DNA from: Mycoplasma ovis str. Michigan
GTDB lineage: Bacteria; Bacillota_I; Bacilli_A; Mycoplasmatales; Mycoplasmoidaceae
Length of the DNA stretch: 64,000 nt
NCBI RefSeq assembly: GCF_000508245.1
Contig: NC_023062.1
Coordinates: 633,254-697,253 of the forward strand
Direction of reading: 5' to 3'
The notes below the pieces were generated by a model. That model did not search any database and was not told the origin of the DNA. It saw nothing but the letters and a program-made list of their open reading frames with translations. The stretch's first letter is position 1. Every line of letters begins with the position of its first letter. Both the position numbers and the translations under genes were made by a program. Positions 11,814-57,451 of the stretch are shown here, piece by piece.

Positions 11814-12964
11814 TTAATTCAGAGTTTCAATAATACATTTTTGTAATCTCAAACATTTAGTAATTATTTGTTCATTATTTTTTTGTAGTTCAAAAATTGG
11901 ACTACAAATTTGGTTGAATTTTTCAATTAAGTGTTGGGGCGGAAGTTTGACTTTAAAGCTTTGGAATTTTGAAAGATTAAAGGAAACTATATCAGTCGAA
12001 TTGTTCAATAATCTCTTTAATTTTGTGACATTTTCCCTAATCAAAAAGTAAATATAAGAAATAGGCAAATTGTGTTTGCCCCCCCCTCAATGACCCACAA
12101 ATTGGGAGAAATAATTAATGTCTTGAGTTGATTGATTAATAAACGTCCACCTTGACGACCAGCCGTTCCAACAAATATCAATCCATTTTCGGGAATTAAT
12201 TTAGCTTTGCATCTTTTAAATCCGGCTTCAGTCAATTGTTCAGAAGTTGAATTTAAAAACTTGCATTCAAAAATGTCTTTTGTTCTTACAAAAGGTATTC
12301 CCCCTTGCTTACAAAAGTAGAGTTTTTCTAAATAAAAATTGGATTTAGGGGGCTGAGATCCTTTCAAAACTTGAAACAAACTTCCAAATCTCCCAAGTTA
12401 TCAAACAAAATATGGTAATAAATTTCCATTCATTCTTCAAGTAATTCATTAACTTTTTTCTTAAGTTGAATAACTTTCTCTAAAGTTTCATATTTATTCA
12501 CAACTTTTTGTTGTACCTCTAGAGGAGGTACTGATATGGGAAGTTTTATGAAATCTTTTCAAGCAAGCTCTCCCCTAATTCCTCCAAAACACATTCAAAG
12601 AAGTCTTAGATCTGTTGATTCTTTTTTAAAAATCAACATCAAGTATTCGCTCGAGAGATTAGGGTTGTTGACTTCAAAAACGTGATATTGGGAAGAAACG
12701 ACAGCTAACTCTTTTCTCTTGTAAAGCCCTACTGCCAATTTTCTCGTTTTTTCAATATCCATCAATCTAACCACAAATTGGTTATTAGAAATTAGAAATT
12801 AACAGGCATCAAGTTAAATTGGTATTTTTTCCAGAATAAGGGGAAACTATGACCTCCTTATCTGAACTAACGCCAAGTAACTTAGTGCTATCTAAATTCT
12901 TATTCTTGTGGGAAATTAAGGAGATGAAATCTCCTAAAGGAGAAATATTATTGTTAAAGCTCAA
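11814..12964 (-). pseudogene. hsdS: Type I restriction specificity subunit HsdS, multiply frameshifted
   Basis: HsdS is the DNA-recognition subunit of type I restriction-modification enzymes. The pieces, in order: a probable TTG start at 12964 with SPLGDFISLISHKNKN; the first conserved region (KTRKLAVGLYKR, KLPISVPPLEVQQKV, a helical spacer); the second half-repeat (FQVLKGSQPPKS, GGIPFVRTKDIF, LPPQHLIEKFNQICSPIF). Three lesions separate them: a 7-bp tandem duplication (attagaa twice, 12784-12797), a one-base deficit in TTTGGAAG near 12385, and a G8 run at 12086-12079 that needs G9. No hsdM or hsdR is in the window. Confidence 0.8.
12079..12086 (-). repeat. Poly-G tract (G8) in hsdS
   Basis: Eight G on the hsdS coding strand (TTGAGGGGGGGGCAAACA). 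With eight, the frame leaves the HsdS sequence after NLWVIEGG and ends about 17 codons on; with nine it continues into NLPISYIYFLIREN and the conserved C-terminal helix. Confidence 0.88.
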
Positions 12965-42460: not shown

Positions 42461-44172
42461 TTAACTCTTTTTAATTACAGATTCTTTAGACACTACCGTT
42501 TTTTGAGTATTGTCTCATTTCAAGCCTAAGAAATCTAAATATTGTTTATAGTTCTTAATTTCTATTGTGTCATCGCCATGAAAAATTCCCAAACTTTTTG
42601 ACTTATTAGATCAATAAATTGGTCTAGCTAGAGAAATACTTTCTAAGTTTTCTTCCGTAATATCTTTAAGAGAATAGTTGATGGCTGGAATAACTCCATT
42701 AGCTCCTCAATCTAACTTCATAACTTTCCATTTTCCTAAATAAGAATAGTTTTCAAAATTACGTCTGCTAGCGTGTTTTCCTGGATCATTTAATCATCAA
42801 CTTAAAGAAGGTAAATCGTCAAGTTGGTATCCTGACTTGTAATATTCTTCTAAGTTATTATTTGTGAATTTGTCATTCACAAATTTATAAAAATAATTCA
42901 TATCATAACCTCCACTCCAATAACTTCCTTTTCCTTTCCACTTCCAAACAGTTAACTCCTGTTTGGCTTGAGCCAAAGAAAAAATTTTGGCTTTACTATC
43001 TCATTTATAAAGATTTACCAAAGCTTTAGCGGACTTTCTTCCCCTCCAATTTTGGTCATCTAATTCTTCCCAATTCCAGAAATAATAGACAGGGTTATTG
43101 TCTTGGTATACATCTAATTTATCCAGAATTGCATTCATGAACAATACGTTATCTGGATTTCCTAACCTTTTTTCAACTAATACACTTGCTTCAAGCTCCT
43201 TTGATACTACCCCATCTTGAGAATTGTTTTGTTTAAGGCCTAAAAAGTCTAGATATTCTTTATAAGTTTTGATTTCAGTAATGTCTTGACTTGCGCTACT
43301 TTCCTTAGGTCCCTCTGCAAAATCCTTGGGCTTGCTAGACCAATAAATTGTTCTAGCTAATTGAATGTTTTGTGATTGTTCCCGAGAGATATCATTTGAT
43401 GATTTGTTGAGAAAAGGAATACATTTTGCAGTTTCCTTATCTAACTTAATAACTCTTCACTGACCAACATAAACTGATTCCAATAATGATCTTTCTGGAG
43501 AAGATTTGTTCTTCCCTGTTCAAGACAAGGAAGAAGATCTATAAGTATCATATTGAGTTCACAAGTAATTTTCCAAGTATGGATTTAAGAATTGATCTTC
43601 TGCAAATTTATAGAAATACTGTAAGTCGTAACCATTGCCTAAGGCCTTACCACGTCCTCACCATTTCCAAATGGTTAACTCTTGTTTTTCTTTAGCAAGA
43701 GTGAATATTTTGGCATTACTATCCCATTGATATAAATCCACTTTGGATTTGGACCTATGTGCGGGATTACTATTTTCTGTTTCTTCTCAATCCCAAAAAT
43801 AATAAATGGGATATTTTCCCATGAATGAGTCAATTTTGTCCAAAATGGAATTCATGAATAAGACATTATCTTGATGTCCCCTAATTCCCCAATTTTGGGG
43901 ACTAGGTGTTTTTAATTCTTGGGCTTTCGGTGCAACACCTTCTTGCTTGTGCTCAATTAACGATAAAGAATAATTCTGAACTTCTTGTTCTCTATAACTA
44001 TTTTGTGATTCTAAAACTCTCTGAGAAGTTAGTTCTAAACTATTGTTTCCATTGATTATCTCGGGGGGGGCAAGGGAAGATAACTACTCAAAGTATTTGC
44101 TCATGTGAGAGAAGCGACAGAAACTGGCGCTAAACCCAAAAATCCTAAAGCTACTTTTATAAGAAGAGACAA
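42461..44172 (-). CDS. Secreted tandem-repeat protein, poly-C/G phase OFF
   Basis: TTG at 44172 opens a signal peptide (LSLLIKVALGFLGLAPVSVA). A C8 run on the coding strand (44070-44063) puts the rest out of frame (PPPR and TAA); nine C restores one frame of 1713 nt, 570 aa. The mature part is two copies of a module of roughly 230-250 aa. Each has NVLFMN-ILDK, a YYFW-W-EE core, LYKWDSKAKIF, KQELTVWKW, a Gly-Tyr-Asp stretch leading to YFYKF, then SLARPIYWSNK or its twin, IEIKNYKQYLDFLGLK. Very Trp- and Tyr-rich, with many TGA-Trp. No known domain recognised. Confidence 0.75.
44063..44070 (-). repeat. Poly-C tract (C8) just after a signal peptide
   Basis: G8 on the plus strand, C8 on the coding strand (CTTGCCCCCCCCGAGATA). 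Nine C would be in frame and encode Pro residues. Confidence 0.9.
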
Positions 44173-44211
44173 TTTACGAGACTACAAATTAATATGCAAT
44201 TTCAAAAAATT

Positions 44212-44320
44212 TTAGATACTTAACCTCTGTCATTTCCCTGAATCCAAATAAATTTGTTTTGAAGTGTTATCTAACTTAAAGCCCAAAAAGTCTAAATGCT
44301 GTTTTAGTTTTTAATATCAA
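44212..44320 (-). pseudogene. 3'-fragment of a tandem-repeat-protein paralogue
   Basis: LKQHLDFLGFKLDNTSKQ on the minus strand matches the C-terminus of the gene at 42461 (YKQYLDFLGLKWDNTQK) and ends in TAA at 44212. A remnant of a second, now deleted copy directly upstream of the first. Confidence 0.65.
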
Positions 44321-44470
44321 GATCTCGATCCCTAATATAAATTAATCTCAAGAAGAAGTCAGAGAAAAGACTACTAATCATAGAAGGCGCCAAAAATATT
44401 AATCAGCCTTAGACTTAAAAATTCATTCCCCTTTAATTACAAACAAAGATGCAGAAATAATAGAACTTAA

Positions 44471-45054
44471 CTAAATCTGAATGCCTGATTGAACTTTTTT
44501 AGTATTACAGGTCAGAGAATAAGATGATTTATTATCATCCTGTGAAATTTGACAATCTTTCTCTGGAATTAATGGATTTTTTTGAACAGTTCTTAATCAC
44601 GATGGATAATGACTTAATTTTTCAATATGTCCACCAACCAAATGGATATCTATAGAATAACTTCCTTTAGTACTAATAACTTGTTTTACTTGTGGAAACG
44701 TTTTGTTGGATTCTGAAATTTTGTTTTTATTAAAGAAATAAAAATTAGGTTCATAATCATCTTGGCTTTTAGTCTTTAAACATACATATAGTTGAGTTAC
44801 TTTACCCTGACTTTCTAATGAGGCGCAACCTCTATACTCTCCATCCTTAACTAACTCCTGTATAGACTTAGTGATAATTTCACTAACTTTTTTGGGTTCT
44901 GAAGGAATACTAGATTCTTGTTGTATTACTACTTGGGGGGGGCAACAGTAAATGCTGGAACTAACTCCTTATTTTGATTAGCAAGTAAAAAAGAGGAAAT
45001 AGAAACTGCACTTAATCCAGAAAAACCGGTAACGGTTTTAGTTAATAGCGACAA
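44471..45054 (-). CDS. Secreted protein, poly-C/G phase OFF
   Basis: TTG at 45054; signal peptide LSLLTKTVTGFSGLSAVSIS, related to that of 42461. A C8 run (44942-44935) ends the frame in APPK and TAG; nine C gives APPQVVIQQESS and a frame open to 44471, 585 nt, 194 aa. The mature part has CASLESQGK, YVCLKTKSQDDYEPNFYFF, a DCQISQD and LTCNTKK, that is, two Cys pairs. One TGA-Trp. The Cys spacing faintly recalls family B. Function unknown. Confidence 0.72.
44935..44942 (-). repeat. Poly-C tract (C8) after a signal peptide
   Basis: G8 on plus, C8 on the coding strand (GTTGCCCCCCCCAAGTAG). Nine restores the frame. Confidence 0.9.
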
Positions 45055-52444: not shown

Positions 52445-52506
52445 ATCTAATTTTCTAAATAATCAATTATTATGGTCTTGATTTGGGGAAGGAGTAATCC
52501 CATTTA

Positions 52507-55500
52507 ATGTCTCCTAAATGGAGGAAGAGACTGCTGTGACTACTACTTCCTTCTTTTGGAGGCCCAACTATCGGTTCTGTAGTTGCCACAGAACTAAATG
52601 GAAATTTTGGAAAGATTAATTTCAAACAGTCTCTCAAGGAAGAAATAGGAAAGTTTATTAGGAGAGTTGGGGGGGGCAACGGGACAGAGGGAGATAACTT
52701 CACTCCAGTTACATTAGTCTCAGATTTAGCAAAAGATCCTAATTCTATACCCCTATTAATGAGAGGCTTTGCGACTCAAGTCGCTAAGCATATTTTTGAT
52801 GGAAGTTTATTCAAAGACAAAAAGTATGAACAGCACAAAAAACACTTTTCTAGCCATCTGAGAGTAGTTAAAGCTAAAGCTGATGGATTAATTAAACACA
52901 AGAGGAAAAGCAAAAAAAGAGTTAAGAAAAATTGAGTCTCGGACGAAGAAAAATATCTTTCATCTCTAGAGGATTTTGTTTTAGGAAAAATAGATACTAG
53001 AAGTATCGAATCCTACTACAAGTTAAAAGAAAATATTTTTACTCCACTAACGAAAGTAAAAGTTCCAAAAGATGCTTTCTCTTTTATTGGATTTTTGATG
53101 TCTCGATGACTAAAAGAAGTTAAAGCTGGTAATTTTATTCATTACATTCTCCCTTATGCTGGAAGTTTTCAAAAAACAACCAGCGAACTTTATGAGAAAA
53201 AATTCACCAACATAAAACTTCCCGATAATCCCAACTTTTATTTCCCAGATTTTGATCCCAAGAAACTAGAAGATTGAAAAAAGATTGTAAATGGGGAAGA
53301 GGGGAAAAAAGAAGAAAATGGCAAAGAAAAGGAGCTGACTATTAAATGAGTTTCTGCAAGTAACACTCCGCAAACCAATTTGGTTTTGAAATATCTTTCT
53401 GAAGGAAATGGAAGTAAAAACGGACTAAATGGCGATCAATGTTCCAAAGAAACGACAAAAAAGGAAGAACTACTTAAGCTTTTCTGTATTGATGGTAATG
53501 GTGGCACAGAAAAAAGTTCAAATAGTGTTGAATTTGTAGTTTGCAATGGAAAAGAGCAAGCCAAAAAACAAATTTTCTGAAGAGACGAAAGAGGGTTTAA
53601 CGTTTTGCTGGCGCATTCCAATGGTAAGGAAAAGGAAAAAGAGGAAGAACGCAAAGAAAACTTTGAAAAGAGTAAAAGTCAAATGGTTTCTGAATTCAAA
53701 GAATATACAAAAAAGAATTTTTCATATCTTCTCCTTCAGTATTACTTATTTATTAATAAAAATGGTTGCAAAAATGGAAAGGACACTATTCCTTGTTGTT
53801 GCAAGGAAGTTATAGAAAGTTTAGTGAAACTTTGAAAACTTAACAGAGAACTTACAGAACTTAATGACAACTTAAAAATTTGAGATATTAGAGAAAGAAA
53901 TAATTCTTTCTTTAAAGTTGTAGATTATTCTGCCGGAGGAGCTAATTACCTTTATAAATTAGGTACAGTTGATGCCAACCCTCCAGAATTTTTAAAAAAA
54001 GTTTCTAAGGAAACTAAGTTAGAAAAGATTAGTTCTGATGTAAGTGAACATCTCAAAAAAGTTGGAGAATATTTTGGGAAGAAATCGGAAGGTGCTCAAA
54101 ATCAAGGAAAAAAGGCTGAAACTGTTGAGCTAAAGGAGAAAGAATATACAGGTTCTGGAGAACATTCAAGTTCCAAATATTGATCTTTTGAGGTTACAGG
54201 AGGAGGCTCTAAAGACCATAAGGAATGTATGAAAAAACAAGTAGCAGAATTCCTACTAGAAAAAATTTCAACTATGGATTTACTCAAAAAGACGTTACTA
54301 CTTCCATTTTCTTTTGAGAAAATCTTTGATTTAACTCAACAGATCGCAACTGAAGGTCAAGGAACAGAATCTGCTAATCCTCTCTCGAAACTTGAAGAGT
54401 TACTAAAAAAAGACTACAGCGGATTCTTTAATTTTGAAGACACATCTAAAAGCAGAAAAAAGAGAGAAGCTCCTAAAGCCCCAGAGGCCAAAGACAAATT
54501 AATTAATATGCTCCAAAAAGCTATTAAAGAAGAGTTGTCAGTTTCACAATTGTCAAATGTATCTGACACTTTACTTTATAAGTTATCTTCTGAAACTTCT
54601 GAGTCTTCAAAAAATGGTACTGATAACTTTGGAGCTATAAAACACCTAGTAACTATAAGTAATCTTTCTAAACAACCATTAAAAACAGCTAATACTTTAG
54701 AAAGATCTCAAATAAGACTATTAGTTACTTCTCTATATCTATTAGAAGACTCTATGAAAGAATATAGAGAATTACTTAAGAATATTATTAAAGAGCAACT
54801 TTTTGGAGGTTATGCATTCTCCATAAGTTGAAATAAATTCTGTACTCAAAGTGATGAAAAAAATCCGATTGATCCTACTAAAGAACTAGGAAATGGTGGA
54901 AGTAGCGGACAAAACAGTTTCTGGCATCCAATTACTTCTTCTACGACAAGCCCGAGTAATGGTGCAAAAGAATGAGATGCCAAAACACTAGACCCTAGAA
55001 AATGTATAAGAACTCCAGACAGATACTCAATATCAACTATTAAAAAAACCTCAAATGGTGCTGGCGGGGGAGGTTCTGGTAGCTCCACAACAAATTCCGC
55101 TATTCAATTAATGGGTTACAAAGGTTCTTTAACTAGAAATTCTCAATTACAACTTCCAGGAGATCTTTATGAAAAAATCATTTCTTTCCTCTTGAAAGAA
55201 GGTCATATAAATTGGACAGATATAACAAAACAAATAGATCTAATTAAGTCAAATAGACAACTCTATAGTGTTATCCAGCAACTAAGCAAAATTAATAGTT
55301 CTCTGGGAGAAATATTTAAGTTGCCGGATTACAAAAATTTAAAAGAGGATGTGGATGAATCTAAAAAAGTTGAAATGCTGGAATGACTTGGTCTAGCTAA
55401 CAACAAGGAACTACTAAAAGAATTTATTCAAAAAAACATCACCAAGACAGAACAAGTGACACAGGTTAGTTCTTCTCCAGAAAATGGTACTGAAGGATCA

Positions 55501-55845
55501 AAAGATAAAGAGGCTTTTTCAGGATTAATGTGAAACACTACACAAGATCAGAAAAAATTTGTGTTCTCAACCAAAGATACTAATGAGGGTTCTGCAGCAG
55601 TTTATCTAATCCAATATAGTGCAAATGATGTTCAAAGTAAGGAAAACTTTGCAAAATTCCTGAAGGGAAAGTTAACTCCAGATGCAGTAATTAAGGATAT
55701 AGTAAAGAAAGCGCAAGATCCAGGATTACAAGCTAAAGCTATCAATCATTACCTAATGAGAGGAAATTATGCTGGAGGTAAAGTCTACAATCTTGTCTCC
55801 GATGATTACTACTTAAAAAATCAATTCTCTTCTATTATTCTTTAA
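52507..55845 (+). CDS. Large secreted/surface protein (1112 aa), poly-G phase ON
   Basis: One frame of 1113 codons with many TGA-Trp. ATG at 52507 follows GGAAGGAG (52488-52495). N-terminal signal: SPKWRKRLLWLLLPSFGG. The G8 run at 52669-52676 encodes VGGGN in frame, about 55 residues in. The rest is mostly helical and charged with Gly/Ser-rich breaks (GAGGGGSGSS near residue 855), a CCC motif near residue 425, and KSRKKREAPKAPEAK near 650, which resembles a basic cleavage or linker site. No known domain recognised. It is by far the largest accessory gene and the only full-length, undamaged poly-G gene in the ON state. Confidence 0.82.
52669..52676 (+). repeat. Poly-G tract (G8), ON
   Basis: AGAGTTGGGGGGGGCAACGG inside the 1112-aa protein gene; eight G is in frame, seven or nine would end translation early. 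Confidence 0.9.
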
Positions 55846-55888: not shown

Positions 55889-56791
55889 ATGGGCTCATTA
55901 ACTACTAAACTATCCATTTATTTCTTCAATCTCAAAGAATTATTTACACACTTACGTGATAAATATTTCTCAATAATTCGTGATCCTAAAGAATTAAGAA
56001 AATGAGGAGGAATATTTGCTTTTTCCAACATATGTAGTACAGTATTTTTTTATCTCTGACACATGTCAGTTTTAGAGCCAAGTGTTGCTAATTCTCTTTT
56101 GATAACCGCTATTATTATTCACTTCTTCTGTGGAGCTAGATTTCTTCCCAATATGCAAAGATTTGGTAGAGTGGCCTTTACCAAATGAGCTTGATTAACT
56201 CTAATATTTGTTTCTCCTTTGGGACTTTTTCTTCTTTACTATGTTTTCAATTCCAAATATTGAATACTAGATGATATTAGTCACGATAAGGAATTGCTTC
56301 AAGCTGAACTTGAAAAGGATAGACAACAATCGTCTAAATCTTTTAAACATAAAAAGATAGAGGCTAAATTCAACTACTCTCTAGCTTACTTAAAAAAAAT
56401 AAATGAGGATATAACAAGAGATATTCTTAGACAAATTCTAAAAATAACTCATAACTCATTTACAGAACTAACTTTTTTTCAGATTAGTGCCGTTATTGCT
56501 CTAGCTACAATCTGTAAACAATGCAAACAAAAAACATTTGATAACTTAATTTGAGGAGCACATTGATATGAAGACAATTTCTTTACATTTGGATTTAAAA
56601 ACAATAAACCTGTTTCCGCCTACAATAGATACCCAATGACTGTAGGTTCTATAGTGCTGGATGAACTAAACAACTATAAAAAAATAATTGATGCTAAAAA
56701 CCAAATAAAAAAGAATTTGTCTTTCTCTGATGCAAAAATAATCTCTTTACATATGGGCGATGAATATAAGTTCTATGTGAATCAACAATAA
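55889..56791 (+). CDS. Conserved-type multi-pass membrane protein
   Basis: 300 aa from ATG. Three or four membrane segments fall in residues about 50-130 (GIFAFSNICSTVFFYLW, SLLITAIIIHFFCG, LTLIFVSPLGLFLLYYVF), then a charged cytoplasmic helix (DKELLQAELEKDRQQ) and one more hydrophobic stretch (ISAVIALATIC). Eight or so TGA-Trp. It lies between the accessory arrays and upp, on the same strand as upp, 39 bp before it. I do not recognise the family. Confidence 0.75.
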
Positions 56792-56830: not shown

Positions 56831-57451
56831 ATGTCTGTGATAGTTTCAAAAAATAATTTAATTAAGAATTTCTTAATTAATGTGAGAAACAAGAACAGTA
56901 GTAGTTTTGTTTTTGGAAGTAATTTAAAAAAGATTACATTAGCCTTACTTACAGAAGCTCATTCAGAGTTTCCGATGGAAAATACAACAGTTGATTCGCC
57001 ATTTGGTAGTTGTCCAGCTCAAAAGATTTCAAAAACTATTACAGTAGTTCCTGTTCTTAGATCTGGACTGGCAATGTCAGATGCTATTCAAACTTTCTTT
57101 GAAGATTGTCAAGTAGTACACATAGGGATTTACAGAGATACTGACTTAAGTGCTGTCAGTTATTATGAGAAATTTCCTTCAGGGATGGAAAACTCCAAGG
57201 TAATTCTTTGTGATCCATTAATTGCTACAGCTGTAACTTTGTCAAAGTCTTTAGATATACTTGCTAGATATAATTGCAAAGACATTACAGTTTTAGGAAT
57301 TATTATTTCAAAACATGCTGTGAAATTATTAACTGAAAAATACCCAAATCTAAATATCTATGTAGCTGCAGTGGATGATGAATTGAATTCTAAGGGTTAC
57401 ATTATCCCAGGAGCTGGGGATGCCGGAGATAGACTATTCAGAACTAAATAA
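56831..57451 (+). CDS. upp: Uracil phosphoribosyltransferase
   Basis: Converts uracil and PRPP to UMP in pyrimidine salvage, needed because mollicutes lack de novo synthesis. 206 aa, the usual length. The N-terminal helix is followed by VVPVLRSGLAMSDA, the PRPP loop VILCDPLIATAVTL (in most Upp: DPMLATGGS), and a C-terminal uracil-binding stretch KGYIIPGAGDAGDRLF. IATAVTL in place of ATGGS is a mild deviation. First clear housekeeping gene after the accessory region. Confidence 0.93.
   Translation: MSVIVSKNNLIKNFLINVRNKNSSSFVFGSNLKKITLALLTEAHSEFPMENTTVDSPFGSCPAQKISKTITVVPVLRSGLAMSDAIQTFFEDCQVVHIGIYRDTDLSAVSYYEKFPSGMENSKVILCDPLIATAVTLSKSLDILARYNCKDITVLGIIISKHAVKLLTEKYPNLNIYVAAVDDELNSKGYIIPGAGDAGDRLFRTK

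What the first reader, a model, noticed from the sequence alone, without database searches (positions are those of the whole stretch)
52507..55845. A 1112-aa secreted protein under poly-G control is the only full-length copy switched ON
Of the eight tract genes, only this one is both in frame with G8 and free of other damage. It has a strong ribosome site, a classical signal peptide, the tract about 55 residues in, and no recognisable domain. If the system is real, this would be the surface protein expressed in the sequenced population.
Basis: partly seen in the sequence, partly recalled or inferred. Interest (0 to 1): 0.75.

Follow-up and report, generated by a model that had tools for sequence, protein, structure and literature searches.

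The report
Surface chaperone-family protein with G8 tract
This gene of the sheep blood parasite Mycoplasma ovis encodes a membrane-anchored relative of an essential mycoplasma surface folding helper (Mpn444); it carries an in-frame run of eight Gs that may act as an on/off switch, but it is one of many such genes and not the only one readable.

Summary
The ORF, its start, the G8 tract (52669-52676, codons 55-57) and the hydrophobic N-terminus are real. The organism is Mycoplasma ovis Michigan. (1) "No recognisable domain": the protein matches Pfam DUF3713 along residues 79-1078 (E 6e-52). That family includes the essential M. pneumoniae lipoprotein Mpn444, deposited in the PDB as an extracellular peptidyl-prolyl isomerase homotrimer. 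The model matches Mpn444 (Foldseek E 1e-9; Z 10.4 for the N-terminal half), and weakly PrsA/SurA foldases. (2) "Only full-length copy ON": true of this window only. The genome has two more intact paralogues, one with the same G8 at the same codons, and about 28 clearly coding G8 tracts are in frame. Six relatives in the genus keep an orthologue (34-49% identical); none has the tract. The poly-G system itself looks real: 120 G8 tracts, in-frame and out-of-frame members within families, and a conserved DUF3713 gene broken exactly at its G8. All 13 clearly out-of-frame G8 tracts are displaced in one direction. Best reading: an anchored extracellular foldase-family protein of suis-group haemoplasmas, duplicated in M. 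ovis, with a plausible but unproven contingency tract in its juxtamembrane linker.

The parts
52507..55845 (+). CDS, 1112 aa, DUF3713/Mpn444-family protein (M. ovis window paralogue)
52489..52494 (+). AAGGAG Shine-Dalgarno-like site, 12 nt before ATG; same AGGAG layout upstream of paralogue L002
52531..52587 (+). Hydrophobic N-terminal signal/anchor segment (about residues 9-27), no lipobox cysteine
52669..52676 (+). G8 tract, codons 55-57 (Gly-Gly-Gly), in the low-confidence linker before the folded ectodomain
52741..55740 (+). Pfam DUF3713 match, residues 79-1078
   Evidence: E 5.7e-52
53125..53619 (+). Region aligning (weakly) with the parvulin domain of PrsA/SurA, residues about 207-371; contains clade-invariant His212 and Gly363-Phe364-Asn365
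54454..54465 (+). RKKR multibasic motif (residues 650-653) in a low-confidence loop; a like motif in both paralogues, M. wenyonii and G032
55889..56791 (+). Downstream 300-aa membrane-protein gene, the syntenic neighbour in all six relatives
56831..57451 (+). upp, uracil phosphoribosyltransferase
   Evidence: PF14681 E 4.5e-55

Best explanation
The gene encodes a suis-group haemoplasma member of the DUF3713/Mpn444 family. Shown: full-length family match, one N-terminal hydrophobic segment, a conserved orthologue in all six same-genus relatives, and a predicted fold like Mpn444. Inferred: the chain is exported through Sec, stays anchored by its N-terminus, and forms an extracellular foldase-like (PrsA/SurA-type) ectodomain, probably trimeric as in Mpn444. 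In M. ovis the gene was duplicated to three copies. A G8 tract arose in the juxtamembrane linker of the window gene and its nearest sister, where three glycines are tolerated. Slippage there would cut the protein to roughly 65-75 residues, so the tract can act as a contingency switch. In the sequenced consensus this gene, its two paralogues and many other tract genes are all in frame.
For: DUF3713 match E 5.7e-52, and matches in all seven further clade and canonical proteins scanned. DUF3713 in 58 of 60 family genomes and 40 of 40 good ones. Profile with canonical rows hits PDB 9gn0/9qgq (Mpn444, 'extracellular PPIase' homotrimer). Foldseek to 9gn0 E 1.4e-9; Z 9.3 over 699 residues for the whole model and Z 10.4 over 456 for residues 58-600, with PrsA and SurA next at Z 3-4. 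Synteny with the 300-aa membrane protein. Tract kept at the same codons in L002 despite different flanks and 25% protein divergence; the only GGG/GGG codons among 56 conserved glycines. Genome-wide tract statistics.
Against: The profile of this clade alone does not find Mpn444 in the PDB at E 0.01, and hhalign against the canonical family covers only the C-terminal third, so the clade is divergent. The full model is of modest confidence (pLDDT 62) and was built from an alignment that included canonical members. The parvulin resemblance is weak (Z about 3.5), and the clade has Asn where canonical members have His, so isomerase activity may be absent. No read-level or second-strain data show that this tract varies.
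Confidence: 0.65

Rival explanations
1. The G8 is a fixed Gly3 linker in this gene, not a switch: the protein is made constitutively.
For: All six orthologues are intact and lack the tract; both copies with the tract at this place are in frame at the same length; G8 length is almost invariant genome-wide.
Against: GGG is a minor glycine codon here (8 of 78) and the exact G8 is kept in two diverged copies; another M. ovis DUF3713 gene is broken exactly at its G8.
Confidence: 0.35
2. One reading: a dedicated, phase-variable surface antigen that is the one expressed in the sequenced population.
For: Surface location likely; tract after the hydrophobic segment as in many M. ovis surface-protein paralogues.
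Against: It belongs to a family found in every good genome of the mycoplasma family sampled, and its tract is one of about 28 in-frame G8 tracts.
Confidence: 0.12
3. Tract lengths in the consensus are partly an assembly artefact, with longer G runs collapsed to eight, so ON/OFF states read from the assembly are unreliable.
For: M. ovis and M. parvum, both assembled from Illumina reads with ABySS 1.2.7 (PMC3907730, PMC4423628), almost lack G9 or longer (2 and 3 words), while M. suis, M. wenyonii, haemolamae and haemominutum have 40-117. All clearly out-of-frame G8 tracts are displaced the same way.
Against: Coverage of 1000-1500x with 100-250 base reads normally resolves runs of 8-10; two G9 runs are present; A/T runs also stop at 8 in this window.
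Confidence: 0.12
4. Ribosomal or transcriptional slippage at G8 lets out-of-frame genes be expressed without DNA change.
For: The single direction of displacement (13 of 13, seven families).
Against: G7 tracts show displacement in both other classes; no stimulatory structure was looked for; two-state length variation explains it as well.
Confidence: 0.06

Closest known systems
Mpn444 of Mycoplasma pneumoniae (DUF3713; PDB 9gn0, 9gnh, 9qgq)
   Same: Full-length family match and predicted fold; large extracellular protein held by its N-terminus
   Different: Mpn444 is a lipoprotein; this one has no lipobox cysteine. The His of the family's Gly-x-His motif is Asn here. Carries a G8 tract
PrsA / SurA parvulin foldases
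   Same: Helical foldase-like N-terminal half with a parvulin-like region at residues about 207-371, outside the membrane
   Different: Weak structural score, no Pfam parvulin (Rotamase) match, and a large extra C-terminal half
Poly-G contingency loci of Campylobacter, Neisseria and Treponema
   Same: Coding G runs in surface genes with in-frame and out-of-frame members
   Different: Lengths almost all exactly eight; variability not demonstrated in M. ovis
M. ovis canonical DUF3713 pair (C1:206056-213008)
   Same: Same family; the second gene also carries a G8
   Different: That gene is out of frame at the tract; the window gene is in frame

Membership tests
DUF3713 / Mpn444 family | Match to PF12506 above the curated cut-off over most of the model | tested here: met
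   177 bits against cut-off 27.2, profile 35-1144 of 1144
DUF3713 / Mpn444 family | Fold like Mpn444 | tested here: met
   Foldseek E 1.4e-9; Z 10.4 over 456 residues; model partly informed by the family alignment
DUF3713 / Mpn444 family | Homotrimer, PPIase activity | not testable with these tools
   Needs protein; known for Mpn444 only from PDB titles
Mycoplasma lipoprotein | Lipobox cysteine after the hydrophobic segment | tested here: not met
   No cysteine in residues 1-40 of any of the three M. ovis copies
Parvulin PPIase (PrsA/SurA) | Parvulin fold | tested here: inconclusive
   70-86 residues at rmsd 3.3-4.0, Z about 3.5
Parvulin PPIase (PrsA/SurA) | Both active-site histidines | tested here: inconclusive
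   By sequence alignment, His212 kept in 9/9 of the clade; the Gly-x-His position is Asn in 9/9; the alignment is distant
Classical secreted protein | Signal peptidase I in the genome | tested here: inconclusive
   No PF10502 in the genome although 12 of 14 controls ring; divergent enzymes not excluded
Poly-G phase-variable locus | Tract in the reading frame, with early stops in the other frames | tested here: met
   G8 at codons 55-57; the other two frames close after 9 and 16 codons
Poly-G phase-variable locus | Length varies between cells or strains | not testable with these tools
   One assembly only; no reads
Poly-G phase-variable locus | Tract conserved in orthologues (supporting, not strictly required) | tested here: not met
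   0 of 6 orthologues have G7 or longer; kept only in M. ovis L002

The most novel reading that the evidence does not exclude
M. ovis runs a genome-wide poly-G contingency system of over 100 tracts tuned to two neighbouring lengths, and has placed it in members of its extracellular foldase family, so that switching a folding helper could change many surface proteins at once.
Probability: 0.25. Interest if true: 0.7.

Novelty: new member of a known kind. Interest (0 to 1): 0.42.

Why it matters
It replaces 'unknown antigen' with a testable identity: a haemoplasma branch of the Mpn444 family. Haemoplasmas persist in blood and are not grown in culture, so how they vary their surface is open; a family of foldase-like proteins carrying G8 tracts, in a genome with about 120 G8 tracts, is a concrete place to look.

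Tried and rejected
Genome-contig scan with the protein returned no relative; relatives came from the genome search instead. NCBIfam: no match. phmmer of the single protein against the PDB gave only chimeric receptor constructs at E 0.009 and worse, rejected as chance. Clade-only profile against the PDB: nothing. Foldseek of residues 58-600 alone gave no match at E 0.001 and did not list 9gn0 among the 50 rows shown, although VIA-align scored 9gn0 at Z 10.4. The dnaX-like gene upstream of the G032 orthologue was not found in the M. ovis stretches held, so only downstream synteny is claimed. Papers describing Mpn444 as a PPIase, or poly-G tracts in haemoplasmas, were not found in the held library.

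Full report
What is there. The window lies at C1:633254-697253 of a 702,511-base genome, the published size of Mycoplasma ovis Michigan (PMC3907730). The ORF at 52507-55845 encodes 1112 residues under code 4. AAGGAG ends 12 nt before the ATG. G8 lies at 52669-52676 and reads Gly55-57 in frame. In the window G7 words occur 16 times against 0.82 expected.

What family it is. Pfam DUF3713 matches residues 79-1078 at E 5.7e-52. The family is in 58 of 60 sampled genomes of the mycoplasma family and in all 40 good ones. A profile of 34 members finds PDB 9gn0 and 9qgq, deposited as M. pneumoniae Mpn444 and 'extracellular PPIase Mpn444' homotrimer. That hit is carried by the canonical members: a profile of this clade alone does not find it, and hhalign of this clade against canonical members is significant only over the C-terminal third (E 1.1e-8). 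The AlphaFold model of the whole protein is of modest confidence (pLDDT 62, pTM 0.61) and matches 9gn0 at E 1.4e-9 and Z 9.3 over 699 residues. The N-terminal part, residues 58-600, is better predicted (pLDDT 75, pTM 0.79) and matches 9gn0 at Z 10.4 over 456 residues, followed by PrsA and SurA foldases at Z 3-4, several of them on residues 207-371 alone.

Relatives and paralogues. M. ovis has three copies of this type: the window gene, L002 (75% identical) and L003 (52%), plus the canonical pair at C1:206056-213008. All six sit beside the same 300-aa membrane-protein gene as in the window. The tree puts the window gene and L002 together with full support. None of the six has a G run of seven or more in the gene.

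Anchoring. All nine proteins have an N-terminal hydrophobic segment and none as hydrophobic elsewhere; the three M. ovis copies have no cysteine in the first 40 residues, so they are not lipoproteins by that sign. No signal peptidase I family match was found in the genome, though 12 of 14 control genomes ring. A retained N-terminal anchor is therefore more likely than free secretion (inference).

The clade differs from the canonical family in the parvulin-like region. At the position where most canonical members have Gly-x-His, all nine have Gly-Phe-Asn; all nine have His212 where no canonical row does. Whether the clade has isomerase activity is open.

Is it the only ON gene? In the window, yes among eight tracts, although only four of these lie in clear sense coding context. 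Genome-wide, no. Scoring codon usage on either side of the 132 tracts held, 28 G8 tracts join the same frame upstream and downstream, 13 join frames displaced in one direction, and none in the other; most remaining tracts could not be called. The displaced G8 cases fall in seven protein families, so counting families the one-sidedness has a two-sided probability of about 0.016. Several families hold both in-frame and out-of-frame members. One canonical DUF3713 gene is split exactly at its G8 (C1:206969). These are the signs expected of a contingency system.

Odd length distribution. From, the genome has 20 G7, 120 G8 and 2 G9 runs. In the window no A or T run exceeds eight either. M. parvum shows a similar ceiling and was assembled with the same program; four other named relatives have many longer runs. 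A technical contribution cannot be excluded.

Does the tract control this gene? For: it is kept as exact G8 at the same codons in L002, with different flanking codons, and these are the only GGG/GGG pairs among 56 conserved glycines; it lies in the low-confidence linker before the folded part, and slippage would end translation 9 or 16 codons later. Against: orthologues lack it, and no variation has been observed. I put the switch at about even odds for this gene.

Judgement. An ordinary identity (a divergent member of a widespread mycoplasma surface family with a foldase-like fold) with an interesting, unproven tract, inside a genome-wide poly-G pattern that is more striking than the gene itself.

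Noticed in passing
whole genome G000: G runs peak sharply at exactly eight (20 G7, 120 G8, 2 G9), and clearly out-of-frame G8 tracts are all displaced in the same direction (13 of 13, seven families).
   Followed up: partly
L041, C1:206056-209288 (-): The second canonical DUF3713 gene is split between two frames exactly at a G8 tract; relatives have an intact copy.
   Followed up: partly
window 54454-54465; L002, L003, L035, L036: A multibasic RxKR/RxRR motif lies in a poorly predicted loop in the M. ovis copies, M. wenyonii and G032, but not in most other relatives; it resembles a furin-type site.
   Followed up: no
window 12079-12086 (-); C1:452938, 258667, 368854: Sequences resembling type I restriction specificity subunits (HsdS; by eye, not scanned) are interrupted at G8 tracts.
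   Followed up: no
window 42461-45000 (-): A minus-strand coding region appears broken near two C8 runs (44063, 44935).
   Followed up: no
C1:456356 and 456779 (-): One ORF carries two in-frame G8 tracts.
   Followed up: no
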